Part shown: piece after piece, positions 12,014-43,213 of the stretch
Layout of the letters: every line of letters starts with the position of its first letter
How positions within the stretch are numbered: the stretch's first letter is position 1
DNA from: a virus
IMG/VR virus record: IMGVR_UViG_3300014819_000002
Location: 1 to 64,000 of that record
Length of the DNA: 64,000 bases
Direction: 5' to 3' (one strand)
Notes under the pieces: model-generated
Databases searched by the model: none
The model's input: only the letters and a program-made list of their open reading frames with translations
Told to the model about the DNA's origin: nothing
Program-made: the position numbers and the translations under genes

Positions 12014-12583
12014 TTATTTATTTATTTTTCCAAAAGCTAATTTAGCCCAATGACTCACATCTCCAGATGGAGCTATTGCTTCTAAATCTTGTGGAGCAAC
12101 CTTTTCTTGTGCTCCTTGCATACCAGCAGCGGCAAATGCACTATAACCACCATTTCTTGATGGATCTTGTGCCATTTGTTGTGGAAGAGTATTAATAGCT
12201 GTGTCTGCCAATATTGCCGCATATGCATTTGCCATCTTATTGTCACCTTTACTCATTTGAGTAGATGTAGCTTCAATAAGCTTTTTAAGTTCATGATTTA
12301 CATTTGGAGCAGCTTGACTACCATATGATGTTGAATCGCCTTCTGGCATGAAATCATCATATCCGGCCATACGTGCAGCAGCAGCACGTGCACGAGCTAC
12401 ATCAACAGGATTTTTATTAGATTTACTTACCATATCAGAAGCTGCAACTCTAATACTTGTTTTAGGACCAGCCCCAGCGTTTTCTAAAACAACGTTAGCA
12501 ACTTCGTTAAATGCACCTTCTTTAATTAACTCACGAATGCATTCTTTTATCAAACCCTTAAAATCTGTTTTTGTCATTTTCAT
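12014..12583 (-). CDS. hypothetical head-associated protein with capsid-targeting-like leader
   Basis: 189 residues. The start MTKTDFKGLIKECIRELIKEGAF is an amphipathic helix with I/L-x-E motifs like the removable capsid-targeting leaders of T4 internal proteins. The rest is Ala/Asn/Met-rich and mostly helical. Adjacent to the prohead protease (3 bases between genes). An internal or core protein is the likely role, by context. Confidence 0.55.
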   Translation of the reverse strand: MKMTKTDFKGLIKECIRELIKEGAFNEVANVVLENAGAGPKTSIRVAASDMVSKSNKNPVDVARARAAAARMAGYDDFMPEGDSTSYGSQAAPNVNHELKKLIEATSTQMSKGDNKMANAYAAILADTAINTLPQQMAQDPSRNGGYSAFAAAGMQGAQEKVAPQDLEAIAPSGDVSHWAKLAFGKINK

Positions 12584-14120: not shown

Positions 14121-17100
14121 TCATTCCAGAATACTAAGGTCGAAATCGTTATTTTGATTTTCTTCTTCTTGTTCTTCTTTTAAGATATCTTTGTTTTCAG
14201 ACTGATTGTAGGAATTAATAACGATTTCATCATCGACTGTTTCCATTTCAAATATATTTTCTTCACTCAAGTTACTTAAGTTAACATCGGCTTCGGTCAA
14301 AATTTTCTTGTTTCTACGACCACCATTTTTTTCAAAATATATGTCAAGTTTATTCATTAGATTTTTGATATCTCTAGATATAACTGGCGGTGGCTTATAA
14401 TCCAAATCAATATCTTCTGATATAGTCGTAAACTGCGATTTCAAGTTTAATGTTTCTTTATCATTGATATCTGTTAAATTCTTATTTGTTCCAGATAACA
14501 TGTCTTTAAAATCTGGCATGGCCAAATTATTGCGTCCACCCATACCAACTCTTCTACGTTTGTTGTGTTGAGCGGCGGAAAGAAATGGTGTTGCCTTAAT
14601 TGGCAATCCAGATGATTCTGCATCCGGTGAAGCAGAAGGTTGCCCAGCTATTGATACGCCACTGGTAGCAACCGCCTGCATATCATTTGAAATATTTTTG
14701 GGTTGAATTGGAGTATTTGCATTTCCACCAACAGGTTCACCTAATGGCGGATTCTTTTTTACATCAGCACCAGCCATTACATAATTGCTTGGATCAAATG
14801 GCCCGGTTGTTGTATTTTTTTCTGGTAAATTTTCTTTTATAGCAATTGCCTCAATTTCAACTTCACGAATTTTATCTCTACGAATACCAGCTTCAATCTT
14901 AATAATGTCATCATCCGTAAGATCGAGAAGCTTCTTTTGAATCCAATCTTGATCAACCAGTTTTGTTTCTTTGGCTTTGCCAGCAATATCAAACTTAGTA
15001 TTCATTGCCTCTAATTTTTGCTGCATTGCTACAGTTGATGGATTACTTAATTTTAATTCAAACGCTATTAGATCCTCTCCATCAAATCCTTTTGAATAGA
15101 GATGAATCATAGCCATTTTATTTAATTCGCTCAAGATAACTCTCTGGAGAACCGAAATTGTTCTTGAGAAACGAACGTCCTGTTGGGCAAGAGAAGCCTT
15201 GGCAGAATTGTGTACAACCACGCCTGCGGAAAGTAAGAAATTGGACCATTTTTCAACTGTAATATCATACACCGGAATTGGTGTGACGGTCTTTATCATT
15301 TCAACGGCAATAACTTTATGGTTATATTTGTTTAAGTTTAGAGTGAACCACTCATTAGGAATGATTCCTTTTTTTCTGCAATGCCTCTCAAAAGTTTCTC
15401 TTGAAATATTGGACTTAATATAGAATTCAGTCCTTGTTTTAGAAGTTGCTGCAATGTTCGCCAGTTCTTCTAAATCAACAAATATACGATATCTTTTAAG
15501 TGGTGGAAGTTTGATAACAGATTGATCAATGGTTTGTTGAATAAAACTTTGCAGATTCTTATACCCAGCTTGCTTAACAACATCTTTAAGACCACGCATC
15601 GAACAACTTAGTTGTTTACATATCGCAACAGGCATATACGTGCCAGCAAATATAATTTGCTGAACTGCTTTTATGTCAGGATTTTTTTTATAGTTCGGAG
15701 CCTCCTGACCAGACATAAATCCAATAGAACGAAGGTCGCTAAGTCTTTTGTGCATCTTCTCAACTTTGTGCAATCTTCGATTTGTTTCCGCAATTGCCTG
15801 TTTCCGGAAAACAGAATTAGCAGATTTCCAAGAAGCTAAAACGCCATCCATATGATTTTTTCGCAACGTAGAATCAGGGTTACGCCACATTCCAGCAATC
15901 TTTTCTCGGTTTTCTATTGTCAAAAGGTTTTTCTTTGCTAGAGCACCGTGAAGTTGACCATGCGCCTTGAAACCCATACGAATAAGATTATCAGGCATAT
16001 TATTTCGTTTATTAAAATCTGCATGATGCACTACAGTCTTTCCCTCCTCTAAGAAAGATTTATCGCATTTTGATTGCTCCCCTAGTGCATCAACAACTAC
16101 TTGATGTGTATATCTCCACTTATTAGCCTGGTTATCATATAACATCTCATATCCATCTAGCTTGTCTCCAGAAGTTTTCGAGGAGAGTTTACGATATACT
16201 GGCATAAGTGACATATCCGGCTTGAGACTATCCGCTCTTACATATTCGCCATTTCTTAACAAGAAAGGATGATTTCCTGTACATTCAATTACTTCACCGT
16301 TATCTATAGTGACTTTATAATACTCATTAACTTCTTTAGTCTTCCAAGCGTTGATAATTTTACCTGGAACTACTGCACCAGAATTTGTATCAATTGAGTA
16401 CGTCCACATCTCTTTCTTTTCAGAAAAAGATTTAACTATCTCCTCAATGGTTGATTCAGTGCCGTCCAACATAGAAATTTTTGTTGTACCAACAAGACAA
16501 AGATTTTCGTCAAAATTGAGATAAGGCTTTGGAACTTGAATAGCTGCAAATAGCTTCTGTTGAAGATATTTTATGTCGTCAACTGCTGTAGCGTTTTGAC
16601 CACCAGCAAGAGTTTCAATCTTTGTTCCAGTTTGACCACCACGAACCGGAATGAAATAGTCTTCGTCAATGCTTAATGGATTATACCTTTGATCCATTCT
16701 ACCATTTGTTCTGTCAACAACGTCTCTTGAGCGCATAGTTTGCTTAACAGCTTCCATATATGACGGAACATCATTCGGCGCTACGTTACCAACATCAATA
16801 TAGAAAACACGACGTTCGGGTGAGCGAACAACACGGTAAACTAACATGCTGTCTTCCATCATCATTAACTGGCGCCAAATTCTTCTGGCAGGCTCGAGGA
16901 GAGAGTTGTGTGTTACAATTCCGTTTGCATAGAAGTTATGATTACTGTCCTGAACATATATGTCATATGTCTCATGTGAGCCAACAGATTCAATAGCTAC
17001 TATTGGTTCGGTAATATAATAATCACTCTTCTTTGAAGGCGAGCTCCATTTCTTGATTTGCTTATTTTGGGATTCAAACCAATAGAACATGTAAGAAGGA

Positions 17101-18662
17101 CTAATTTGCTTAAATTCTCTTAAAATTCCGTTTTCAACAATTCTACCTTTTACATTTCTTGACTTTCTTTTGGTTATCTTACCGGTCTTATATCCAAGCG
17201 TCTGCGCCAAGGTTTTAAGATCCTTAATCAATTCATAGTTTGACAATTCAAAGCAATGGCGCTCACATTTCCACTTGTCAACATAAGAACTACCATCTGC
17301 ATCATGCATACCCTGCAAGAATGCCTTACGACACTCGGCAGATGTTGCATAAACCCAGGATGGAATTCTTTTTGTTGTAGCTTTCCCTGCGAATCCCATT
17401 CTTTGAAGAATTATTGTTAACATCTTAGAGGAAGCAACCGTCTGAGATCCTTGATTAATCGAAGTATTTGGTTTCTTACCGGTAAACTTCTCAAGAAGAG
17501 ACGCATAAAAAATATTTTGCTTATCGTCCACTCCATTTGCAAAACATACTTGATTTCCAGAAATCCATCCATCACCAAGTAAAAAGCCAAATAGACGAGC
17601 AAATTCCGGAGTAACATTCTCTGGTATATATCTGGAACTATTCCAGTATCCATTTTTGTTCTTTTCATTAGGTCTAGACCTGTCGATAGAAACGTTTGTT
17701 TCCTTTGCGCTGTGAGTTGTGTTGATTATCAACATATCTCCAACTCTTAAATCTCCGGCGCTCTTATAATCAAAAGAATCCTTTGAGGCATCCCAAATCA
17801 AAATTTGATGTTCCTTAGATGTTCTTAAGAAGTTATGTTTTGTTCTTATTTCAAAACATGGTTTAAATCCAGAATTCTTTACACCAAGAACCGGTGATAC
17901 GACTTTTTGCTGTGATTGTAAATCAAAAGAAACAACTCTATCGCCAACCTTAATGTGCTGAATTTCCTTCAGACCATCTTCAGTTAGAATTTTAGTTGTT
18001 TTTTCATGACATGTCCCGTATGGCAAGAATAAATCATTACCAAGAACACGCATATGTGTTATTTGCCAGTTCTCAAGGTATCTATTTCCTCTTGTAAGCC
18101 ACTTATAACGAACAGCATATGGATCGTATTGATCAAAACCTTCTTCTCGTTCTAACTCATTTACAGGAATTGGTTGGACGTTAACAATACCGATATCTGG
18201 AATAACTTCATTATAGAGGAAGAAATCTCCATATTTGACTAAATTGCGTATCCATGGACGAAGATTAAAGTCTATATTGAGGATATCATAGAAGAGTTCT
18301 TCAAGAGCTTTTTTTACTTCCGGATTTTTAGAAAATAAGTGAAAAGCTTTACCCTTTTCATCACCGGCTGCTGTTTCATCAGCGAATATATTTAAAGCAG
18401 CAGCAATTTCTGGCTGATATTCCATTTCTGCGAATTCAGAATAACGAGCCATACGGTCAAGAATGCCATAGGCTCCGAGAACAGAGAAAGGGGAACTTTC
18501 ACGACCAAACGGAAATGGACCACGATAACCTAAGTTACCACGGACTAATTGATTATCGTAATAGCTTTTATAATCATATCCTTTAACACGACGTTGGATT
18601 GCGGGTCCAGACCGGAACAATTTGGTTAGTCTGGAAAAAAATGGATCATTTCGATTGGCCAA
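14121..18662 (-). CDS. portal protein, T4 gp20-like, interrupted by two inteins
   Basis: 1513 residues as translated; 713 after removing inteins at residues 218-586 and 722-1152. Exteins start ANRNDPFFSRLTKLFRSG and carry portal segments such as FADETAAGDEKGKAF, EPARRIWRQLMMMEDSMLVYR, FYIDVGNV and the YMEAVKQTMRSR helix, like the gp20 family. The start codon appears to be TTG at 18662: the codon before it in frame is not ATG, a stop lies two codons further up, and GAGG stands 9 bases ahead. The C-terminal 250 residues are acidic and disordered. Portal forms the DNA gate at the head vertex. Confidence 0.9.
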   Translation of the reverse strand: MANRNDPFFSRLTKLFRSGPAIQRRVKGYDYKSYYDNQLVRGNLGYRGPFPFGRESSPFSVLGAYGILDRMARYSEFAEMEYQPEIAAALNIFADETAAGDEKGKAFHLFSKNPEVKKALEELFYDILNIDFNLRPWIRNLVKYGDFFLYNEVIPDIGIVNVQPIPVNELEREEGFDQYDPYAVRYKWLTRGNRYLENWQITHMRVLGNDLFLPYGTCHEKTTKILTEDGLKEIQHIKVGDRVVSFDLQSQQKVVSPVLGVKNSGFKPCFEIRTKHNFLRTSKEHQILIWDASKDSFDYKSAGDLRVGDMLIINTTHSAKETNVSIDRSRPNEKNKNGYWNSSRYIPENVTPEFARLFGFLLGDGWISGNQVCFANGVDDKQNIFYASLLEKFTGKKPNTSINQGSQTVASSKMLTIILQRMGFAGKATTKRIPSWVYATSAECRKAFLQGMHDADGSSYVDKWKCERHCFELSNYELIKDLKTLAQTLGYKTGKITKRKSRNVKGRIVENGILREFKQISPSYMFYWFESQNKQIKKWSSPSKKSDYYITEPIVAIESVGSHETYDIYVQDSNHNFYANGIVTHNSLLEPARRIWRQLMMMEDSMLVYRVVRSPERRVFYIDVGNVAPNDVPSYMEAVKQTMRSRDVVDRTNGRMDQRYNPLSIDEDYFIPVRGGQTGTKIETLAGGQNATAVDDIKYLQQKLFAAIQVPKPYLNFDENLCLVGTTKISMLDGTESTIEEIVKSFSEKKEMWTYSIDTNSGAVVPGKIINAWKTKEVNEYYKVTIDNGEVIECTGNHPFLLRNGEYVRADSLKPDMSLMPVYRKLSSKTSGDKLDGYEMLYDNQANKWRYTHQVVVDALGEQSKCDKSFLEEGKTVVHHADFNKRNNMPDNLIRMGFKAHGQLHGALAKKNLLTIENREKIAGMWRNPDSTLRKNHMDGVLASWKSANSVFRKQAIAETNRRLHKVEKMHKRLSDLRSIGFMSGQEAPNYKKNPDIKAVQQIIFAGTYMPVAICKQLSCSMRGLKDVVKQAGYKNLQSFIQQTIDQSVIKLPPLKRYRIFVDLEELANIAATSKTRTEFYIKSNISRETFERHCRKKGIIPNEWFTLNLNKYNHKVIAVEMIKTVTPIPVYDITVEKWSNFLLSAGVVVHNSAKASLAQQDVRFSRTISVLQRVILSELNKMAMIHLYSKGFDGEDLIAFELKLSNPSTVAMQQKLEAMNTKFDIAGKAKETKLVDQDWIQKKLLDLTDDDIIKIEAGIRRDKIREVEIEAIAIKENLPEKNTTTGPFDPSNYVMAGADVKKNPPLGEPVGGNANTPIQPKNISNDMQAVATSGVSIAGQPSASPDAESSGLPIKATPFLSAAQHNKRRRVGMGGRNNLAMPDFKDMLSGTNKNLTDINDKETLNLKSQFTTISEDIDLDYKPPPVISRDIKNLMNKLDIYFEKNGGRRNKKILTEADVNLSNLSEENIFEMETVDDEIVINSYNQSENKDILKEEQEEENQNNDFDLSILE
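15207..16499 (-). mobile_element. intein 2 of portal, with HNH-type endonuclease
   Basis: 431 residues (722-1152 of the product), from Cys in CLVGTTKISMLDG to VVVHN, followed by Ser. Splicing block B is CTGNHPFLL. Instead of LAGLIDADG it holds an HNH pattern, VVHHADFNKRNNMPDNLIRM, followed by helical DNA-binding stretches. Inserted next to the PYLNFDEN segment of the portal. Splicing residues (Cys1, block B His, terminal HN, +1 Ser) are all present. Confidence 0.9.
16905..18011 (-). mobile_element. intein 1 of portal, with LAGLIDADG endonuclease
   Basis: 369 residues (218-586 of the product), from Cys in CHEKTTKILTEDGLKEI to NFYANGIVTHN, followed by Ser. Two LAGLIDADG motifs are seen, LFGFLLGDGWI and LQGMHDADGSS. 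Block B is TSKEHQILI (His present). Fully equipped for splicing and homing. Confidence 0.92.
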
Positions 18663-27859: not shown

Positions 27860-27914
27860 TTATTTTTTCTTCCTGTTACTATGTTACTATGTTACGATTA
27901 TGTTAATTATCGTA

Positions 27915-27994
27915 CCTGAGCGGCTGGAATCGAACCAGCATTTTCAGATCCATTTACGGATAAAAGCTTAGAAGGCTTCCTCGTCTACGCCCAG
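27915..27994 (-). tRNA. tRNA-like element, anticodon arm reads UCU (Arg), D-arm missing
   Basis: Acceptor stem CTGGGCG / CGCTCAG (7 bp, one G-T) and T-arm GCTGG-TTCGATT-CCAGC are intact and correctly spaced. A perfect 5-bp anticodon arm GAAGC-CTTCTAA-GCTTT gives anticodon TCT. Only 8 bases (TAGACGAG) stand where the D-arm should be, and 23 bases with a small hairpin follow the anticodon arm. Either a degenerate tRNA or an odd minimal form. CCA is not encoded. Confidence 0.5.
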
Positions 27995-28047
27995 ATTATC
28001 TTTAGCTCTATATAAATATAACAAATTTGTTGTTTGATATAAACTAT

Positions 28048-28610: not shown

Positions 28611-28850
28611 TCAATTTGTCACAATCGGCTCAATACGAAGGCATCCCTCCCTAACCATATCATTAACAAAAATATTAACGTTAGTAGTTCGAATAAATGC
28701 CCCGTAAGCCTTATACGCCCTTTCTGCCACTTCCTCCATATACTGCTTAAGCGATCCGGTATCTGCGTGGCTCGTAATCCACAATCGCTCCACGAATTCT
28801 TCGTTATTACGAGCCGGGATAGTCCAATGAAAGAAATGATAGTTATTCAT
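28611..28850 (-). CDS. hypothetical protein between cyclotransferase and amidoligase
   Basis: 79 residues from the ATG at 28850. Not recognised. Alpha/beta-looking (YHFFHWTIPARNNEEFVERL; NVNIFVNDMVREGCLRIEP). TGATG overlap with the amidoligase stop makes it part of the same message. Confidence 0.6.
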   Translation of the reverse strand: MNNYHFFHWTIPARNNEEFVERLWITSHADTGSLKQYMEEVAERAYKAYGAFIRTTNVNIFVNDMVREGCLRIEPIVTN

Positions 28851-29962
28851 CACGCCCCAAGATCCGCAGCACGCTCGTTGAAATAACTCACAACCGTTGC
28901 AGGAAGACCACGGAGAGCGAAATCATCCGAGCCAACCGTAGGCATGAAGGAAGCCGGGCTAGCGGGCCGAGCCGGGCGAACGGTGCCATTGTTGAGAGAA
29001 TTCTCAATCTCGGTCAAACGAATGATGCTCACCGACGTAGTGTAGGTGCCATTCCAGCGAGCCTTACGGATACGCACACCCCATTTGCTACGGATCTCCG
29101 AAATGCAAGCCGGGATGCTCGCCTCGGCGTAACCCGAAACCTGCGAAAGATAGGCGATGGTGGACCGCTCACCGGTACCGGTCTGACTGTAATCATACAT
29201 CGCATGAAGCATCTTGAAGAGGCGACGATCCCGAACACTCGGACGACCAGCCGGGCGACCACGACGAGGCCGAGCAGGCGCCGCCACCGCAGGGATTGCA
29301 GAGGTAACAAGCGATCGACTAGTCTCGACGAAGTTAAGAACGAAAAGAACCCAATTTCCGATCTTCTCCGGGCTCACCGTGCCGCTGTGCTGACGGAATT
29401 CAATGGTGTTCTGCCGAACGTAGGCAGCGAGGTTAACCTTGTAGTAGCGATCCCACGAACGGCTCAGGATATCAGACGACGTGCTGCAAGCCGCTAGCTG
29501 CGTGCCGTAAGAACGGCTCCAATCCGCCATGCTCTTAAGATACGTGTTATTGTTCGCACGACGGCTCACCGGCATGTAGCTGTCGATCACGTTCTCGAAA
29601 GACTCATAACGCTTGACGATCATCTTGATCTCATTGATCGTGAGATCCGCAGCGCCGACGTGCACATGAAGCCCGCAGGTCTTATTAGCCGTTGCGCCCG
29701 CAGCCGAAAGAGCCGCTGCGACCGTGCGGAGCTGATTAAGCCCGTCGAGCCCACGAAGCACAGGCGAAACGACCTCGATGCCAGGATTGCCACGGTTATC
29801 ACGCACCGAACCATCGGTCACGATCTTCCAATGGGTCCGTGTTATGTGATTATAGCCTTCGATCTCGCAAGCGAAACCTGCTGCCGTGATAGCAGCATGA
29901 GCCGCCGACCTCGAAATCCCGATGCACTCGATCTCCACACCAAACGTCCGATTCATCATCAT
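28850..29962 (-). CDS. amidoligase-family (glutamine-synthetase-like) enzyme
   Basis: 370 residues. FGVEIECIG at the start, then GIEVVSPVLRG near 82-92 and CGLHVHVGA near 117-125 match the COOH-NH2 ligase (putative amidoligase) family, where the Glu and His residues bind metal and ATP. RQNTIEFRQHSGT near 205 is the conserved end motif. Residues 240-330 look like an added winged-helix domain (RSTIAYLSQVSGYAEASI). Family members are predicted to join amino acids or modify peptides with amide links. The gene is strikingly GC-rich compared with its AT-rich neighbours, which suggests recent transfer or different codon pressure. Confidence 0.85.
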   Translation of the reverse strand: MMMNRTFGVEIECIGISRSAAHAAITAAGFACEIEGYNHITRTHWKIVTDGSVRDNRGNPGIEVVSPVLRGLDGLNQLRTVAAALSAAGATANKTCGLHVHVGAADLTINEIKMIVKRYESFENVIDSYMPVSRRANNNTYLKSMADWSRSYGTQLAACSTSSDILSRSWDRYYKVNLAAYVRQNTIEFRQHSGTVSPEKIGNWVLFVLNFVETSRSLVTSAIPAVAAPARPRRGRPAGRPSVRDRRLFKMLHAMYDYSQTGTGERSTIAYLSQVSGYAEASIPACISEIRSKWGVRIRKARWNGTYTTSVSIIRLTEIENSLNNGTVRPARPASPASFMPTVGSDDFALRGLPATVVSYFNERAADLGA

Positions 29963-31273: not shown

Positions 31274-31707
31274 TAAATATTGGGTCGTTTAGCAGAATAT
31301 ATTTTTTCTAAGATATCGTTGCTATAAACATCTTGTTCGCCGCCTCCGATACCCCAAACACATGCAATTCCCAATTCATTACATAATTGCCGTTCTGGTG
31401 TATTTTTTTGCCCTCGTATACCTCCATTACCAAATATATTTGGTTTTAATCTTTTTAAGGCTTCGCATACTGTACCATCATGATCATCAACTGATTCAAC
31501 AAAATCAATACCCTTAATAGCTAATAAAATTTCTTTGCGTTCATGCCAAGGCATCATCACAAGACCTTTTTTCTTCATTAACCACGAATCACTATTTAAA
31601 ATGATTAATACACGTCCAAAATTTTGAGCACCCTTAATCATACGAATATGGCCAGGATGAATAATATCAAATCCACCAGATAAAGCGATTATTTGGTTTT
31701 TAATCAA
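31273..31707 (-). CDS. cytidylyltransferase-like nucleotidyltransferase (RfaE/TagD type)
   Basis: 144 residues. [20 protein letters not shown] carries the HxGH motif, [16 protein letters not shown] the N..D..V-type segment, and [18 protein letters not shown] the RxEI..AL region of the RfaE C-terminal / glycerol-3-phosphate cytidylyltransferase family. These link a nucleotide to a sugar phosphate or alcohol phosphate. ATGA overlap with isocitrate lyase upstream puts both on one message. Confidence 0.85.
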
Positions 31708-32969
31708 AATTGTTCTGCCTCTGTACTATCTTTCAATGCTACCGTTGATGCACCGTTTTGCACAGTGTTCTGAATATAATCGAAATATCCAGTTCCTACA
31801 AAGCTTTGATGTTTAATTGCTCGAAAACCTTGAGCCTGCATTTCAAACTCTTTTTGTTGCAATTCAGAAAAACCTGCCATTCCATTTCGCTTATAATTCT
31901 GACTCAACTCAAACATTGAAGTATTAAGAGAATGAAAACCTGCAAGAGTAATAAACTGGAAACGATATCCCATAGCCGCTAACTCTTCACGGAATGTAAG
32001 CATCTGACCACGATCAAGATACTTAGACCAATTAAAGCTTGGAGAACAGTTATAAGCAAGTAGCTTATCTGGATATACATTATGAATGCCCTCTGCAAAG
32101 GCTCTGGCGACGTTTAAATCAGGTTTACTTGTTTCCATCCATAGAAGGTCAGAATAAGGCGCATATGCCAATCCACGAGCTATGCATTGTTGTAATCCAT
32201 TATGTACACGATAAAAACCTTCTGCCGTTCTTTCTCCGGTAAGGAATGAACGATCTCTTTCATCAATATCACTTGTTATAAGATTTGCGGCTTCACCATC
32301 TGTTCTAGCAATAATAAGAGTTGGAACATTGGATACGTCAGCAGCTAATCTTGCAGCAATAAGTTTTGCAATTGCTTCGCTCGTAGGCACAAGAACTTTA
32401 CCACCTAAATGACCACATTTCTTTGCACTAGATAATTGATCTTCAAAATGAACACCGGCAGCACCAGCTTCAATCATCATTTTCATTAACTCATAAGCAT
32501 TTAAATTGCCACCAAATCCTGCTTCTGCATCGGCTACTATAGGTTGCATCCAATCTTTACTATTATCTCCATTAACGCTATCGATCTGTTCACAACGTAG
32601 GAGAGCATTATTAATTTTTTTAATAACTGCTGGTACGCTATCTATTGGATAGAGAGATTGGTCTGGATACATATGACCAGCTAGGTTTGCATCTGCTGCT
32701 ACTTGCCAACCGCTTAGATAGATTGCTTCTAATCCGGCTGCTACTTCTTGAATTGCTTGATTTCCAGTAAGAGCACCAAGAGCAGCAACATATTCTTGAT
32801 TATTTAAACGTTGCCAAAGTTTTGTTGCTCCAAGGCGGGCTAATGTATGTTCCACCAAAACTTTACCACGAAGTTTTAAAACGTCTTCTGGTGTATATGG
32901 ACGTGTAACACCCTTCCATCTTGGATTTGTTTGCCAATCTGCCGCTAATGTTTCTTTGTTATATGTCAT
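31704..32969 (-). CDS. aceA: isocitrate lyase
   Basis: 421 residues from the ATG at 32969 (full length for the enzyme, about 430). The signature [14 protein letters not shown] (183-196) with catalytic Cys185 is intact, as are [15 protein letters not shown] (140-154, metal and glyoxylate site), [15 protein letters not shown] and NCSPSFNW (307-314). It splits isocitrate into glyoxylate and succinate, the first step of the glyoxylate shunt. No malate synthase is seen in the window. The next gene overlaps by 4 bases. A terminator stands just upstream, so it probably has its own promoter in the 30 bases between, or antitermination is used. I know of no well-studied phage isocitrate lyase. Confidence 0.96.
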
Positions 32970-33000
32970 GTGGCTATTATGACATATGCACAATTATTTG

Positions 33001-33211: not shown

Positions 33212-33490
33212 CTCCATTTCCTGGACTCGAACCAGGGACCATTCGGTTACTTTGCCACTATAGTTTTCACTACCCTTTCGGTTTGTGGTCTGGACTATAC
33301 CATTACCCTCGTCTTTCTCGTTAGGGTATTGCCCCTCTAGTCTCTACACCTTCCTTTTGGGCTTGGCTCGGGATTGTCATCAGCTTTACCTGTTAAGAGT
33401 TCCCCGAATTTGGGCAATTTTTCATTCATAAATTTCTTAATGAAGCTGCTAACTGACAGCCGAACGCTCTACCAACTGAGCTAAAATGGA
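33212..33490 (-). tRNA. tRNA-Asn (GUU), split by a group I intron
   Basis: Exons 33456-33490 (35 bases) and 33212-33249 (38 bases) join to a 73-base cloverleaf: acceptor TCCATTT/AAATGGA, D-arm GCTC-AGTTGGTA-GAGC, anticodon arm TTCGG-CTGTTAA-CCGAA, variable TGGTC, T-arm CCTGG-TTCGAGT-CCAGG, discriminator G. It closely resembles bacterial tRNA-Asn and keeps the canonical T-loop. The intron falls between anticodon bases 35 and 36. CCA is not encoded. Confidence 0.93.
33250..33455 (-). ncRNA. group I self-splicing intron in tRNA-Asn
   Basis: 206 bases. The 5' exon ends in T and the intron ends in G, as group I chemistry needs. P1 forms between exon GCTGT (33460-33456) and the guide GCAGC (33449-33445) with the U-G pair at the splice site. 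The Q-type element AATCCCGAGCCAAGCC (33375-33360), P7 strands GACTA/TAGTC (33342-33338 and 33297-33293) and the P8 hairpin (33327-33305) are all present, and the core resembles that of cyanobacterial tRNA-Leu introns. It encodes no protein. An HNH gene stands 16 bases upstream of the tRNA. Confidence 0.93.
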
Positions 33491-38398: not shown

Positions 38399-38464
38399 AT
38401 GTTCATGATATCACATATAAGAAATATTTCAAGTAATATAATTTATCCAGAATTATTGTTAAAT

Positions 38465-38827
38465 TGGAGATGTGCGGTACTGCCCCGCAGTCTCAAGAGT
38501 ATTCAATTAATTTGTTGTCACATAGTATAGCTCTTTAATAAATTACCCATCATAAGCTTAACCAAAGAGCAGGTTGTATATGATATGGTTCCAATGTTTA
38601 AACTTTGGCAGTAGGAACTATCCTTACAAAGTCGAGTTTGTTTTATGACAATCTTAATCAATCCTCAAACGGCGTATCAACTAGATTGCTTACTGTCAAG
38701 CAGCAAGAGCGTAAGAGCTATAGGAACTATCGTTTGCACTTACTTTTGTTTACGGTTTTAAACGGTCATAAACGCCCGTTACTATGCAAATTAATTTTCA
38801 AATCCTGATCGAATCTATTTCATCCCC
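38465..38827 (-). ncRNA. ssrA: tmRNA (ssrA) with tag ANDSSYSSYALAA
   Basis: 363 bases, one-piece. The 5' end GGGGATG pairs with CATCTCC at the 3' end, giving G3-U70, the alanine identity pair. GATTCGATCAGGATTTG after it is the conserved tmRNA D-region. P2 forms between 38787-38796 and 38505-38514 (10 perfect bp). T-arm TGCGG-GGCAGTA-CCGCA. The tag frame at 38737-38696 begins with GCA and reads ANDSSYSSYALAA then TGA, with the AND start and ALAA proteolysis end of bacterial tags. It would free stalled ribosomes and mark products for ClpXP. No SmpB was seen, so the host's is presumably used. CCA is not encoded. Its 5' end overlaps the upstream gene's last 8 bases. Confidence 0.95.
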
Positions 38828-39194
38828 CTTTTTTTTCCATATATGGAAAAATACTATATGTGGTTCCATGTTTTCTAAAAATCCATGTTCCTAAAACGGT
38901 ACCATATATTATAGATTTAGATTTTAAAACAGCAGCAAGACCACTTTGATTCATCCAATAACGAGCACCAGTTTCTGTATTTTCCCAAAGTATCTTGCCG
39001 CCATAATACATTTTAATAAATTTTAAATTGGCATCAAAACGTTCATTAACACGCCATTCATATTTTTGACCCCAATTCAACTTCCTCATTTCATACAATG
39101 TTATTTGATGCGGCACACTTCCGATCGGAAGATTAGGAATCCGTTCAGCTTCTTTCACATATGGTATTTTATATTCTACTTTCTTACGAGCCAT
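38820..39194 (-). CDS. hypothetical protein overlapping the tmRNA 5' end
   Basis: 124 residues, not recognised. Basic and aromatic (LYEMRKLNWGQKYEWRVNER; YGGKILWENTETGARYW). Its last codons and TGA coincide with the first 8 bases of the tmRNA, so the tmRNA 5' end would be cut from a longer message. Confidence 0.65.
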   Translation of the reverse strand: MARKKVEYKIPYVKEAERIPNLPIGSVPHQITLYEMRKLNWGQKYEWRVNERFDANLKFIKMYYGGKILWENTETGARYWMNQSGLAAVLKSKSIIYGTVLGTWIFRKHGTTYSIFPYMEKKGG

Positions 39195-39211: not shown

Positions 39212-39664
39212 CTATGACAGAAGTCTAAAAGCTTTTATCCTTCTATAAAATGTTTTTATTTTCCGAATTAAACGTTTCCACCACCATCCCGGTTTACGTT
39301 TATAACCGTCTTTTTTTTCATGACATGGTACACAAAGAGGTTGAACGTTTTTAGCATCATTAATCCCACCTTGATTCAAAGGAATAATATGATCTAAAGT
39401 AAGTCTATGTCGTCCTCGTATTCCACAATGAGCACATGACCAATTATGAGTATATAAAACGTTAATCCACGAGCGAACAGAAATTCGACTCGTGGAATAT
39501 TTGCGACTTCTTTTACTTTTATTATTTGATCTTAATCGATTTCGCTCTGCTTGCCAACATGAACGACATATCATAGCATAATTTGATGGCGCTTTAAGAG
39601 TTCGCCGCAAATCGCTAAAACATAGCTTACATGTGTATTTTTCGTTTCTAAAATGATGTAACAT
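39212..39664 (-). CDS. HNH endonuclease
   Basis: 150 residues. Two Cys pairs at the start (CKLCFSDL; CRSCWQAE), then WSCAHCGIRGRHRLTLDHIIPLNQGG and NVQPLCVPCHEKK, the complete HNH_ type site with LDHIIP and C..CH. Probably a homing endonuclease, free-standing. Start overlaps the deaminase stop (TAATG). Confidence 0.88.
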   Translation of the reverse strand: MLHHFRNEKYTCKLCFSDLRRTLKAPSNYAMICRSCWQAERNRLRSNNKSKRSRKYSTSRISVRSWINVLYTHNWSCAHCGIRGRHRLTLDHIIPLNQGGINDAKNVQPLCVPCHEKKDGYKRKPGWWWKRLIRKIKTFYRRIKAFRLLS

Positions 39665-40104
39665 TAAAACACAAGATCCGTCGTTTCTCCGTCAGGCTTA
39701 ATCAACATCTTACCAAACTGATGTTCATTAATTGTATAATATGCTTTGCGAATTCCATAGCTATACAAAACGTTTTCACAAATAGGACATGGGCGGGCCA
39801 TGCCAGGATTACCATCCAATTTTTTTCTACGAGCAACAAAAATCTTACAACCTTTAAGGTTAACTTTACCACGAGCTTTAAGAATAGCATCTTGTTCTGC
39901 ATGAGTTGACAAACAAAAATCTCGACCACGACCACGAGTAATATCTGTATAATGTTCAACAAATGCGTTGGTATTATGTTTATTATAACCTACTGAAATG
40001 ATTGAACCACCTCGAACAATAATAGCGCAAAGATGATAATCGATTTGACTATCATAATCTTTTTCTTTTGCATATTGCATTGCAAGACGTAGATAACGAT
40101 GCAT
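39664..40104 (-). CDS. deoxycytidylate/cytidine deaminase-fold enzyme
   Basis: 146 residues. Zinc site LSTHAEQDAI (His68, Glu70) and ARPCPICENVL (Cys106, Cys109) are as in dCMP deaminases and relatives. Preceded by a SVGYNKHN loop. In T4-like phages dCMP deaminase feeds dTMP synthesis; here other pyrimidine or nucleic-acid deaminase roles stay open. Confidence 0.85.
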   Translation of the reverse strand: MHRYLRLAMQYAKEKDYDSQIDYHLCAIIVRGGSIISVGYNKHNTNAFVEHYTDITRGRGRDFCLSTHAEQDAILKARGKVNLKGCKIFVARRKKLDGNPGMARPCPICENVLYSYGIRKAYYTINEHQFGKMLIKPDGETTDLVF

Positions 40105-40168: not shown

Positions 40169-43100
40169 CTATTCAAGCAACCATTTCCAACGCTTCCAAT
40201 ATGCATTTCTGAAATCTTGACCTACACCACCATGCTTGGCTGCGTCTTGACGATTTTGTATATCTTGAATTTGAGCATATTCTTTAATACCATCACTAGT
40301 AATGATTGGTGGCATATATTTGTTTTGCTCACCAAATTGATTCCCCATGTTATTCATAGTTGAAGTTGTTTTACTCATACCAGCTATCATTGCCATTGTC
40401 ACAGCTTTGTCATCCCAGGCATTAACACCAGCAGCTTCATATAGAGAATTACCAATAGCTAAAGCTATAATCAAATCGTCGTTATAGCTTTTCATAGCTT
40501 GGGCTTTATTATTCTTCCATATAAAGGTCTTAAACTCTTCTACGGTTCTGGATGAATATATTTTCATTCTACGTGTTCGGATAACAGTTTCAAGTTTAGC
40601 TAAGATTTCATCACGGTTTTTTGGACCGGTAGTAAACCCAGGCAAATCATTTGCAATGTCTGCCGTTGTATATGACATATAAGCATTACTACGATGAATA
40701 CGCTCATAATAAATGTTTGGATATTGCGCTTTCTTAATATCGGTTGCTACGATAAGACCGAATGAGTTAAGTTCTGGGCATAAGAGGGCTTGATTGTATT
40801 TAAAGCCTAAGTCCATCATTAACTCGGCTAGCCTTTCCGGTGGGCATTTACCTTGATATTCACATACAACTTCATCGGCATTAGTATCTATAACATGAAG
40901 GGTTGAATAGTCGTCGGCATCACCACGACTTACATCTCCGCTGATTATATATTTGTGATTTGGTTCTGCATATTTCCAAATCCATACATCGCCTCTATCT
41001 CCATAGGTGGCTATAGGTTGTTTTATTTGCCTCTCCATATCTTCTATAACGTCAGCAGATAGGAAGTTCTCACCGGAGGCGGCGAATTTGCATAATAGCT
41101 CCTGAGCTATTCCACGTTCACCTTTGGCTGGTAAAATCTCTGCTCTCTGAGCTTCATACCAAGCTTGATCTCTCTCCGGATGAACCGTCCATGGGAGTTC
41201 TATGCGATAGAAATTATTATTGCCCTTGCCAGGATTTGAATTGCCTTCTCCATCCTCGCCTTCTTTAGCGCCGACCCAAATCTTATGAAACAAAGTTCCA
41301 ACTCCACTCGGAGAACTTATTAAAATAGCATTTCCACCAGTGTTTGAACCTAAAATACCGTTCTGTAGAAAGGTGTGACTGCGTGGGACTGTGAAATCAT
41401 AAGTTTTTGCCTTTCCAGATTCGGTTTCTACTACCGCATCCCAAAAAAAATTACCAATTATATTGTCAAAAAATTCTGTAACGCCGGTATCAAGCAACAA
41501 TGATGGATTTGCTAAATAAACAAGATATTTGAATTTACACAACCAACTGTTACTAACAGAACGATTATGATCGTTGCCTTGCAACAAGGTTGTTTTTAAA
41601 CCATTTTGATGAAACCACCATTTTGATTTCCCAGTCTTTTGAATGATTTCGTTTAAAGGTTTACGTATAGGTAATATTGGACAACGATTTAAATCACTAT
41701 CTTTTCTATTTTCTACCGAAAGCATTTGCTTTTGTTTTCTTTGAATTCTAAATCCAATTTCTTTAGCAAATTTCATAGATTCACTCTTTGGAATCTCTAA
41801 AACCCAAGTGGTTCTTGCAGATTTAGTATTTGTTAAATTACTACGTGCTGTTTTCTTATTAACATTAGGATGAAATCCCATGTTCAAAAGTAAGAGCTGC
41901 ACATCTTTAATCATTTGCTCAGATGTTAATTCAATTTTTGCAATACCCTTGTAGGCAGTACCATCTCCGTCAAATAATCCAGATAAGTAATTTTGCTGAG
42001 TTTGCTTATTAGCTGTCCATATAATCTTAGGAACGGTTTTATTGTAAGATAATTCGTTAATATTAAGCCCAAGATTTTGTAATTTTTTTACAACAGCAAC
42101 AGAATATAATGTTAAATGGTGTTTTCCGTATGCATGAAAATTTTTTCCAAATATAGTATGTTTTGCCCTATTCAAATAAACATCTCTAAATTCAGAATCT
42201 GAATTGGTAATTTGTATACCGCAATATTCTACTCTGCCAAAACGATTTCTTTTTCGTTTTTTTATACAGCCTTCAGCAGAATATCCTCCCAACATATAAG
42301 CCAAATCAGGATTTAATTTCTTATCACCATAGCAGTTCATACCAACTTGTATTCTAAGATAATCTCCTGGCTTTATATTCTGTATTTGTTTCATAGAGCC
42401 GCCAGCAGCATCAAGAACCCACAAAGGATGCTTGAGCGTTCCTTCAACATTATATCCATGCTTGGTTGTTAATTTGATTGTATCGCTTTCTGGAGATACA
42501 TAACCATGAGACAGCGGTTCAAGACCATTTTTTCCATAAACTTGCCATCCATCAATTTCAAAATATTCTCCAATAGAACGACCTTTATGAAAATCTTCAA
42601 TTGCAAATATTCCCTTGTCGGTAAAAACTTTTGTGTTGCCGACAAGACAAGATAAGGTAGGCCACAAACCAAGCCACAATTCATCAATACCATCAACGTG
42701 GGCAGCTTCGTCAATGATTAATAAAGATAGAGCTTCAGAACGACCAGCATCGGTGCCAGTAGGAACGGCTTGAACCTTTGAACCATTAGAGAACTCAAGG
42801 TATCTAACAGAACGTGCTTTAATCTGAGGCATGACAAGCCACTTTGGCAAGTTGTCATACATTCCGTTAACCTTCTTAATGAAGTTCTTTGCAACTTCAA
42901 GACGGGTAGCGATAACAAGAATATTTTTTTCACGCTGGAATAAAGCCATCCAAAGAGAATAGGCGGCAGATAGGGTAGATAAACCTAACTGACGACTTTT
43001 GTTTGTAATGACGAAACGATGTTTTTGGAAGGCAGTTAAACACTTATCCTGATATGGGAAGGTTTCAAATGGAATTGGACCCTTAACTGGATGGGAGATT

Positions 43101-43213
43101 TTAACGTATTTAGAAATGAAATAGGATGCATCTGTTCCGCAGCGCATGATTTCTTTCATTTGTGCGGCACGATTTGGAACTGTTCCTAATGTTAGATTTT
43201 TTTTAGCAGGCAT
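40169..43213 (-). CDS. terminase large subunit, T4 gp17-like, with intein
   Basis: 1014 residues translated, 578 after removing the intein at 189-624. ATPase motifs: Walker A-like NKSRQLGLST (71-80), Walker B LSLLIIDEAAH (162-172), coupling motif ILISSPSG. The nuclease half starts ISGDVSRGDADDYST with the catalytic Asp, continues with LLCPELNS and ends with a DDLIIALAIG segment. It cuts concatemers and pumps DNA through the portal. TGATG overlap with the upstream gene (43213). Confidence 0.95.
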   Translation of the reverse strand: MPAKKNLTLGTVPNRAAQMKEIMRCGTDASYFISKYVKISHPVKGPIPFETFPYQDKCLTAFQKHRFVITNKSRQLGLSTLSAAYSLWMALFQREKNILVIATRLEVAKNFIKKVNGMYDNLPKWLVMPQIKARSVRYLEFSNGSKVQAVPTGTDAGRSEALSLLIIDEAAHVDGIDELWLGLWPTLSCLVGNTKVFTDKGIFAIEDFHKGRSIGEYFEIDGWQVYGKNGLEPLSHGYVSPESDTIKLTTKHGYNVEGTLKHPLWVLDAAGGSMKQIQNIKPGDYLRIQVGMNCYGDKKLNPDLAYMLGGYSAEGCIKKRKRNRFGRVEYCGIQITNSDSEFRDVYLNRAKHTIFGKNFHAYGKHHLTLYSVAVVKKLQNLGLNINELSYNKTVPKIIWTANKQTQQNYLSGLFDGDGTAYKGIAKIELTSEQMIKDVQLLLLNMGFHPNVNKKTARSNLTNTKSARTTWVLEIPKSESMKFAKEIGFRIQRKQKQMLSVENRKDSDLNRCPILPIRKPLNEIIQKTGKSKWWFHQNGLKTTLLQGNDHNRSVSNSWLCKFKYLVYLANPSLLLDTGVTEFFDNIIGNFFWDAVVETESGKAKTYDFTVPRSHTFLQNGILGSNTGGNAILISSPSGVGTLFHKIWVGAKEGEDGEGNSNPGKGNNNFYRIELPWTVHPERDQAWYEAQRAEILPAKGERGIAQELLCKFAASGENFLSADVIEDMERQIKQPIATYGDRGDVWIWKYAEPNHKYIISGDVSRGDADDYSTLHVIDTNADEVVCEYQGKCPPERLAELMMDLGFKYNQALLCPELNSFGLIVATDIKKAQYPNIYYERIHRSNAYMSYTTADIANDLPGFTTGPKNRDEILAKLETVIRTRRMKIYSSRTVEEFKTFIWKNNKAQAMKSYNDDLIIALAIGNSLYEAAGVNAWDDKAVTMAMIAGMSKTTSTMNNMGNQFGEQNKYMPPIITSDGIKEYAQIQDIQNRQDAAKHGGVGQDFRNAYWKRWKWLLE
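41342..42649 (-). mobile_element. intein of terminase, with LAGLIDADG endonuclease
   Basis: 436 residues (189-624), from CLVGNTKVFTDKGIFAI to SHTFLQNGILGSN, followed by Thr. LAGLIDADG motifs LAYMLGGYSAEGC and LSGLFDGDGTA. Block B is EGTLKHPLWV. The penultimate residue is Ser instead of the usual His, which could slow Asn cyclisation. Inserted between Walker B and the coupling motif, i.e. in the ATPase core. Confidence 0.92.

What the first reader, a model, noticed from the sequence alone, without database searches (positions are those of the whole stretch)
38465..38827. Phage-borne tmRNA with complete tag frame
A one-piece tmRNA is readable base by base: acceptor with G3-U70, conserved D-region, 10-bp P2, and a tag ANDSSYSSYALAA. 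The tag is longer than E. coli's and has an inserted Ser/Tyr stretch, while both functional ends (AND and ALAA) are kept. It could rescue ribosomes stalled on degraded host messages and recycle amino acids.
Basis: partly seen in the sequence, partly recalled or inferred. Interest (0 to 1): 0.92.

Follow-up and report, generated by a model that had tools for sequence, protein, structure and literature searches.

The report
Phage tmRNA with switched tRNA-like elbow
A virus of bacteria carries its own copy of the RNA that rescues stuck ribosomes; the copy is real and looks functional, and its tRNA-like corner has been switched to a type usually seen in a different group of bacteria, apparently a repeated event in phages.

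Summary
Window 38464-38827, minus strand, is a complete one-piece tmRNA (RF00023, 76 bits, E 1e-27; ARAGORN misses it). It lies beside the terminase genes of an uncultured T4-like myovirus (103-kb record). The acceptor (G3-U70), T-stem, 10-bp P2, pseudoknots and tag ANDSSYSSYALAA are all present; 69 of 70 assigned pairs form, with many compensatory changes. CCA is not encoded and no SmpB gene was found.

The D-loop is UAG, not UGG, and the T-loop is GGCAGUA, not UUCRANY. This is a coherent alternative elbow, typical of alphaproteobacterial permuted tmRNAs. Across about 290 distinct tmRNAs, A18 goes with G55 and G18 with U55; A18/U55 never occurs.

Close relatives carry the tmRNA at the same place with tag ANDS(N)SYALAA. 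L125 has the A18 elbow; L126, identical to L125 in most of the core, has the canonical one. A second phage tmRNA family also mixes both elbows. The window's longer tag is a 9-nt in-frame insertion seen nowhere else.

Most likely it performs trans-translation with host SmpB. Tuning of the elbow to the host is inferred; the host is unknown. Amino-acid recycling is untested and already published.

The parts
38464..38827 (-). complete one-piece tmRNA gene (ssrA)
   Evidence: RF00023 76 bits, full model; homologous, syntenic tmRNAs in L124-L128
38821..38827 (-). acceptor stem, 5' strand GGGGAUG
   Evidence: 7/7 pairs with 38466-38472 including G3-U70; pair 7 is G-C here and A-U in L126/L128, a compensatory change
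38807..38820 (-). D-loop region AAAUAGAUUCGAUC; A at 38816 replaces tRNA-type G18, G19 kept at 38815
   Evidence: alignment; class tally
38782..38807 (-). P2 helix, 5' strand, followed by PK1
   Evidence: 10/10 pairs in AAUUAAUUUG/CAAAUUAAUU plus 6/6 in GCAUAG/CUAUGU
38748..38780 (-). pseudoknot 1 (AACGG/CCGUU and GUUUA/UAAAC)
   Evidence: pairs form in all compared relatives; compensatory AACGG/CCGUU to AGCGG/CCGCU
38738..38743 (-). GUAAGU just upstream of the resume codon; keeps U(-5) A(-4)
   Evidence: sequence; role of the five upstream nucleotides from PMC3968760
38696..38737 (-). tag reading frame ANDSSYSSYALAA, resume codon GCA, stop UGA
   Evidence: translation
38722..38730 (-). 9-nt in-frame insertion that doubles SSY; absent from the five relatives
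   Evidence: alignment
38602..38631 (-). pseudoknot 3 region; holds GAUAGUUCCUA (38612-38622), an exact 11-nt copy of the tag start with its insertion
   Evidence: window-lineage compensatory C-G to U-A change in ACUUUG/CAAAGU
38490..38525 (-). P2 helix, 3' strand, and the GAC before the T-arm
38473..38489 (-). T-arm UGCGG-GGCAGUA-CCGCA; non-canonical T-loop at 38478-38484
   Evidence: 5/5 stem pairs; the same loop in 90 alphaproteobacterial permuted tmRNAs and in one-piece phage tmRNAs L208, L272, L292, L311
38466..38472 (-). acceptor stem 3' strand CAUCUCC, then A73 at 38465; CCA not encoded
   Evidence: sequence
38820..39194 (-). upstream ORF, 124 aa, no Pfam match; its end overlaps the first 8 nt of the tmRNA; the same gene precedes the tmRNA in L125-L128
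40169..43213 (-). terminase large subunit (with an extra endonuclease-like stretch); anchor for the syntenic relatives
   Evidence: relatives

Best explanation
38464-38827(-) is a working phage tmRNA. It is transcribed with the terminase-side genes on the minus strand and matured by host enzymes (5' end, 3' trimming, CCA addition). Host AlaRS charges it through G3-U70, and host SmpB and EF-Tu carry it to ribosomes stalled on cut or stop-less messages. There it adds Ala + ANDSSYSSYALAA, whose YALAA end marks the product for ClpXP-type proteases. Its tRNA-like elbow is of the A18/G55 class (D-loop UAG, T-loop GGCAGUA) instead of the G18/U55 class (UGG, UUCRANY) of most sister phages. The two loops change together, and the switch has happened more than once in phages while the message and pseudoknot core stayed the same. 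So the elbow behaves as an exchangeable part, most simply to fit the SmpB and tRNA-handling enzymes of whichever host the phage infects. Shown here: the RNA's anatomy, conservation, covariation and repeated switching. Inferred: charging, SmpB use, tagging, proteolysis and host tuning.
For: Full-length Rfam match. Syntenic tmRNAs in five relatives found through the terminase. 69/70 assigned pairs intact, with compensatory changes in acceptor, T-stem, PK1, PK2, PK3 and P2. Tag frame intact with YALAA end. Elbow class: distinct tmRNAs score 194 A18/G55, 80 G18/U55, 0 A18/U55, and 9 G18/G55 that are mostly one-base length variants; leaving out loci found by the T-loop pattern, 62/80/0/6. Core trees need at least 2 elbow changes in the window family (A18 rows as one clade rejected, AU p 0.005) and 4 in a second family (at least 2 on well-supported branches; one clade rejected). 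L125 and L126 are identical over PK1, tag, H5/PK2 and PK4, but only 16/25 alike in the first 25 nt and about 16 of 25 towards the 3' end, while flanking genes are 87-97% alike. No SmpB in the record or in 28 related records.
Against: No expression, charging or tagging data exist for this uncultured phage. The host is unknown, so host tuning cannot be tested here. L125 and L126 are close siblings and may share a host, which would speak for tolerance of both elbows rather than tuning. The phage's isocitrate lyase is closest (67%) to that of a genome with a one-piece, canonical-elbow tmRNA (G090), not to an alphaproteobacterium. A T-loop without U54/U55 cannot receive the usual m5U/pseudouridine. 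The record is a fragment, so a missing SmpB gene is weak evidence.
Confidence: 0.72

Rival explanations
1. A decaying tmRNA copy: the odd D- and T-loops are damage, and the RNA no longer binds SmpB.
For: ARAGORN rejects it and its Rfam score (76 bits) is below those of its relatives (98-132 bits). The D/T loop interaction is required for SmpB binding (PMC3968760).
Against: The same loop pair occurs in 90 alphaproteobacterial tmRNAs and in several unrelated phage tmRNAs. All stems are kept by compensatory changes, some private to the window lineage. The tag frame is open.
Confidence: 0.07
2. A decoy: the phage tmRNA occupies host SmpB and so blocks rather than helps rescue, as proposed for the tRNA-like-domain-only RNA of mycobacteriophage DS6A.
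For: No phage SmpB found. A DS6A-type molecule strongly inhibits tmRNA, perhaps by titrating SmpB (PMC4131195). A tag-less 71-nt relative with the same elbow exists in another viral contig, L256.
Against: A decoy would not need an intact tag, resume signal and four pseudoknots, all of which are conserved across the relatives.
Confidence: 0.08
3. An ordinary tmRNA whose elbow changes are neutral: SmpB accepts both classes, and the switch reflects random recombination among phage tmRNAs.
For: Sibling phages L125 and L126 differ in elbow with near-identical cores. Both classes occur within the Patescibacteria sample. Host tuning is untested.
Against: In the samples here the class follows bacterial lineage (90 of 90 classed alphaproteobacterial hits A18, though baited by the loop; Pseudomonadota one-piece sample all UUC). 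The two loops never mix as A18/U55.
Confidence: 0.3
4. A leftover of phage integration into a host ssrA gene.
For: ssrA is a known integration site, and fragments of it occur in prophages (PMC9004378).
Against: The gene is full length, sits between virion-assembly-side genes of a T4-like phage, and is syntenic in five relatives of 62-90% core identity.
Confidence: 0.02

Closest known systems
Bacterial one-piece tmRNA (Rfam RF00023; E. coli ssrA)
   Same: gene order, G3-U70, P2, PK1-PK4, AND...YALAA tag
   Different: A18/G55 elbow with T-loop GGCAGUA, 13-aa tag with doubled SSY, no encoded CCA
Alphaproteobacterial permuted tmRNA (RF01849; RF04321)
   Same: elbow: the D-loop A before G19 and a GGC(A/G)GUA T-loop, as in the RF01849 consensus
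   Different: the window gene is one-piece, with tag and pseudoknots of the one-piece type
Phage tmRNAs (mycobacteriophage Bxz1 group, Bacillus phage G, Melnitz and pelagiphages, huge phages; PMC4131195, PMC9004378, PMC7162821)
   Same: a full tmRNA carried by a phage; Melnitz also has a tmRNA whose type differs from that of its host's lineage
   Different: Melnitz is two-piece; here only the elbow is of the other type within a one-piece RNA, and sister phages differ in it
Mycobacteriophage DS6A tRNA-like-domain-only RNA (PMC4131195, PMC11915505)
   Same: phage RNA able to engage SmpB
   Different: the window RNA keeps tag and pseudoknots; L256 is the closer match to DS6A
Engineered DAS+4 ssrA tag (PMC8138137)
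   Same: residues inserted between the adaptor-binding half and the ClpX-binding end of the tag
   Different: natural, three residues (SSY), ALAA end intact; an analogy only

Membership tests
tmRNA (RF00023) | significant covariance-model match over the whole RNA | tested here: met
   76.0 bits against cut-off 47, positions 1-374
tmRNA (RF00023) | 7-bp acceptor with G3-U70 for AlaRS | tested here: met
   7/7 pairs, G3-U70 in all six aligned RNAs
tmRNA (RF00023) | tag frame with Ala resume codon and hydrophobic -ALAA end before a stop | tested here: met
   GCA ... ANDSSYSSYALAA*
tmRNA (RF00023) | P2 and pseudoknots | tested here: met
   57 of 58 assigned pairs outside the acceptor and T-stems
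tmRNA (RF00023) | D-loop/T-loop pair able to form an elbow | tested here: met
   A18/G55 class with G19/C56 kept, shared by many other tmRNAs; canonical UGG/UUC form not met
tmRNA (RF00023) | charging, SmpB binding, peptide tagging | not testable with these tools
   needs biochemistry or proteomics
Alphaproteobacterial permuted tmRNA (RF01849) | circularly permuted, two-piece gene | tested here: not met
   acceptor 5' strand precedes the tag and the T-arm follows it within 364 nt
Alphaproteobacterial permuted tmRNA (RF01849) | T-loop GGC(A/G)GUA with D-loop AG | tested here: met
   RF01849 consensus; 90 of 90 classed alphaproteobacterial loci, a set baited by the loop
Tag-less tRNA-like-domain RNA (DS6A type) | no message domain | tested here: not met
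   tag and pseudoknots present

The most novel reading that the evidence does not exclude
Phages re-key their tmRNA to a new host by swapping only the tRNA-like elbow (D-loop and T-loop together, with parts of P2) while keeping the tag and pseudoknot core. The elbow class of a phage tmRNA would then predict the SmpB type of its host, and the window phage, with an alphaproteobacterial-type elbow on a one-piece RNA, records such a host change.
Probability: 0.33. Interest if true: 0.7.

Novelty: new variant of a known kind. Interest (0 to 1): 0.5.

Why it matters
tmRNA is a universal bacterial ribosome-rescue RNA, and its D-loop/T-loop elbow is where SmpB binds. Natural pairs such as L125 and L126, which share most of the core but have different elbows, are ready-made tools to test how SmpB reads tmRNA. 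They also allow a test of whether phages adapt this RNA to their hosts. The elbow covariation may explain why a common finder (ARAGORN) overlooks some real one-piece tmRNAs, and it gives a simple marker for viral sequences of unknown host. The unique SSY insertion is a natural counterpart of spaced degradation tags made in the laboratory.

Tried and rejected
Megablast and blastn of the region and of several tmRNAs against named phages gave no tmRNA relative, so no cultured relative gives a host. The SSYSSY tag pattern was searched in IMG/VR and GTDB genomes without a match. A tag-plus-H5 pattern was badly spaced and found nothing. Non-matching extra hits of the PK1 pattern (L133, L136, L137) carry no tmRNA. 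My first T-loop tally mixed permuted genes with one-piece ones and gave false arms; it was replaced by scans anchored on the D-region with acceptor and T-stem pairing. The first D-loop alignment rule misread UAGGAUUCGAC as A18; it was replaced by a fixed-length rule, which leaves nine G18/G55 cases, mostly one-base length variants. I considered decay of the elbow and rejected it. Isocitrate lyase as a host marker points to no alphaproteobacterium and remains ambiguous.

Full report
WHAT IS THERE. The Rfam tmRNA model matches window 38464-38827 on the minus strand from its first to its last position (76.0 bits, cut-off 47, E 9.7e-28). ARAGORN does not report it. The RNA begins GGGGAUG (38827-38821) and ends CAUCUCC-A (38472-38465); CCA is not encoded. 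G3-U70 is present. The tag frame 38737-38696 reads ANDSSYSSYALAA and stops at UGA.

THE PHAGE. The window is part of a 103,126-base uncultured virus record. It encodes a T4-type portal (PF07230) and major capsid protein (PF07068) and a large terminase, so it is a T4-like myovirus; the capsid protein of named phages is at most 47% identical. No SmpB gene was found in the record or in 28 related records, all possibly fragments. The phage must then rely on host SmpB, AlaRS, EF-Tu and the CCA-adding enzyme (inference from known tmRNA biology, PMC3968760).

RELATIVES. The terminase found nine related contigs. Five of them (L124-L128) carry a tmRNA just downstream, as the window does. Their tags are ANDSSYALAA (four) and ANDNSYALAA (one). 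Against these, the window has a 9-nt in-frame insertion, AUAGUUCCU at 38730-38722, which doubles SSY. The two SSY copies differ at three synonymous positions. The inserted stretch with its left neighbour, GAUAGUUCCUA, is also an exact copy of a sequence in PK3 that the close relatives share. Either a diverged tandem duplication or a templated insertion from PK3 could explain it; I cannot decide. No other tag of this pattern was found in IMG/VR or in one genome for each of about 85,000 prokaryote species. A laboratory parallel is the DAS+4 tag, which has four residues between the SspB-binding half and the ClpX end (PMC8138137); that is an analogy, not evidence.

THE ELBOW. It is not: the window has UAGAUUCGAU where canonical tmRNAs have UGGNUUCGAC, and its T-loop is GGCAGUA, not UUCRANY. 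L125 shares the D-loop exactly and has T-loop UGCGAAU; L124, L126, L127 and L128 are canonical. I measured D-loop base 18 (fixed distance from UCGAC) and T-loop base 55 in every locus where acceptor, T-stem and GAC could be found. After collapsing identical elbows there are 194 A18/G55, 80 G18/U55, 9 G18/G55 and no A18/U55; among loci not fetched by the T-loop itself the counts are 62, 80, 6 and 0. Most of the G18/G55 cases have one base more or less in the D-loop. G19 and C56 stay. So the odd loops are two halves of a coherent alternative elbow. It is the usual form in alphaproteobacterial permuted tmRNAs (RF01849 consensus; 90 of 90 classed alphaproteobacterial hits, a set baited by the loop) and occurs in some one-piece tmRNAs of Candidatus Saccharibacteria and other Patescibacteria. 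Unusual T-loops in a mitochondrion and in Caulobacter were noted in 2005 (PMC1168896). I did not find the 18-55 rule, or the elbow switching in phages, in the papers held; most subscription literature is not held.

SWITCHING. L125 and L126 are sibling phages: their flanking genes are 87-97% alike, and their tmRNA cores are identical in PK1, tag, H5/PK2 and PK4 (PK3 55/57). Yet the first 25 nt are 16/25 alike and the last 45 nt about 65-70% alike; there L125 resembles the window (25/25 at the 5' end) and L126 resembles L128 (25/25). A tree of the core needs two elbow changes in this family, and A18 as one clade is rejected (AU p 0.005). A second phage family (tags ANDNG...) with 17 distinct members needs four changes (two on well-supported branches), again with both loops changing together. 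In both families the elbow moves as a unit against the background of the core. Recombination between phage tmRNAs is the simplest route; stepwise change cannot be excluded, since L125 (UGC) is chemically intermediate.

MECHANISM AND RIVALS. I take the RNA to be a working tmRNA: charged with alanine, delivered by host SmpB and EF-Tu, and tagging products of stalled ribosomes with ANDSSYSSYALAA for proteolysis. The anatomy is shown; each biochemical step is inferred. Decay of the elbow is disfavoured by its recurrence and by compensatory changes. A decoy role like that of phage DS6A (PMC4131195) is possible but does not explain the kept tag and pseudoknots. The benefit to the phage (rescue on cut messages, amino-acid recycling) is open and was already proposed for Melnitz (PMC9004378). 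Host tuning of the elbow is my favoured reading of the switching, but L125 and L126 are so close that they may share a host, and the isocitrate lyase gene of the phage points to a genome with a canonical one-piece tmRNA. I put host tuning at about one in three.

VERDICT. The finding is real and is a member of the tmRNA family. Phage tmRNAs as such are known and fairly common. The new parts are the one-piece RNA with an alphaproteobacterial-type elbow, the near-perfect 18-55 covariation, repeated elbow switching in two phage families, and a unique tag insertion.

Noticed in passing
L256:3612-3682 (+), IMG/VR contig 3300025896_000050: A 71-nt tag-less tRNA-like-domain RNA with encoded CCA, A18-type D-loop and GGCAGUA T-loop, behind a terminator-like hairpin and near a tRNA cluster: a second candidate for the DS6A type of mini-tmRNA. 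It was the only one found in 3.9 Mb of loci; Rfam matches it only below cut-off.
   Followed up: partly
window 31704-32993 (-): Intact isocitrate lyase (PF00463; best sampled bacterial relative 67% identical), a glyoxylate-shunt gene in a T4-like phage. ORFs of similar length stand in similar places in L125-L128, not checked by profile.
   Followed up: partly
window 33269-33465 (-): Group I intron (RF00028, 66.9 bits) between the isocitrate lyase ORF and a 187-aa ORF; which gene it interrupts was not worked out.
   Followed up: no
window 14121-18662 (-): Portal gp20 ORF of 1513 aa with intein-type inserts (Intein_splicing, Hint and LAGLIDADG_3 matches).
   Followed up: no
window 40169-43213 (-): Terminase ORF of 1014 aa with an endonuclease-like stretch in its middle; the close relatives' ORFs are about 580 aa, so probably an intein or homing insert.
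   Followed up: partly
window 27914-27995 (-); L124:13959-14040 (+): tRNA-like gene that ARAGORN gives a 4-base anticodon (ttta). About 47 nt of its middle are identical to L124 although the tmRNAs are only about 60-70% alike. It looks like a tRNA with a long variable arm and an anticodon loop CUUCUAA.
   Followed up: partly
L474 near 12057-12080 (+): Phage tmRNA of the ANDNG family whose tag reads on past ALAA without a stop in the first 20 codons (ANDNGVAPFALAALGTGVPA): an extended tag or a defective copy.
   Followed up: no
window 28850-29962 (-) and 39664-40104 (-): Amidoligase-like protein (PF12224) and dCMP-deaminase-like protein (PF00383).
   Followed up: no
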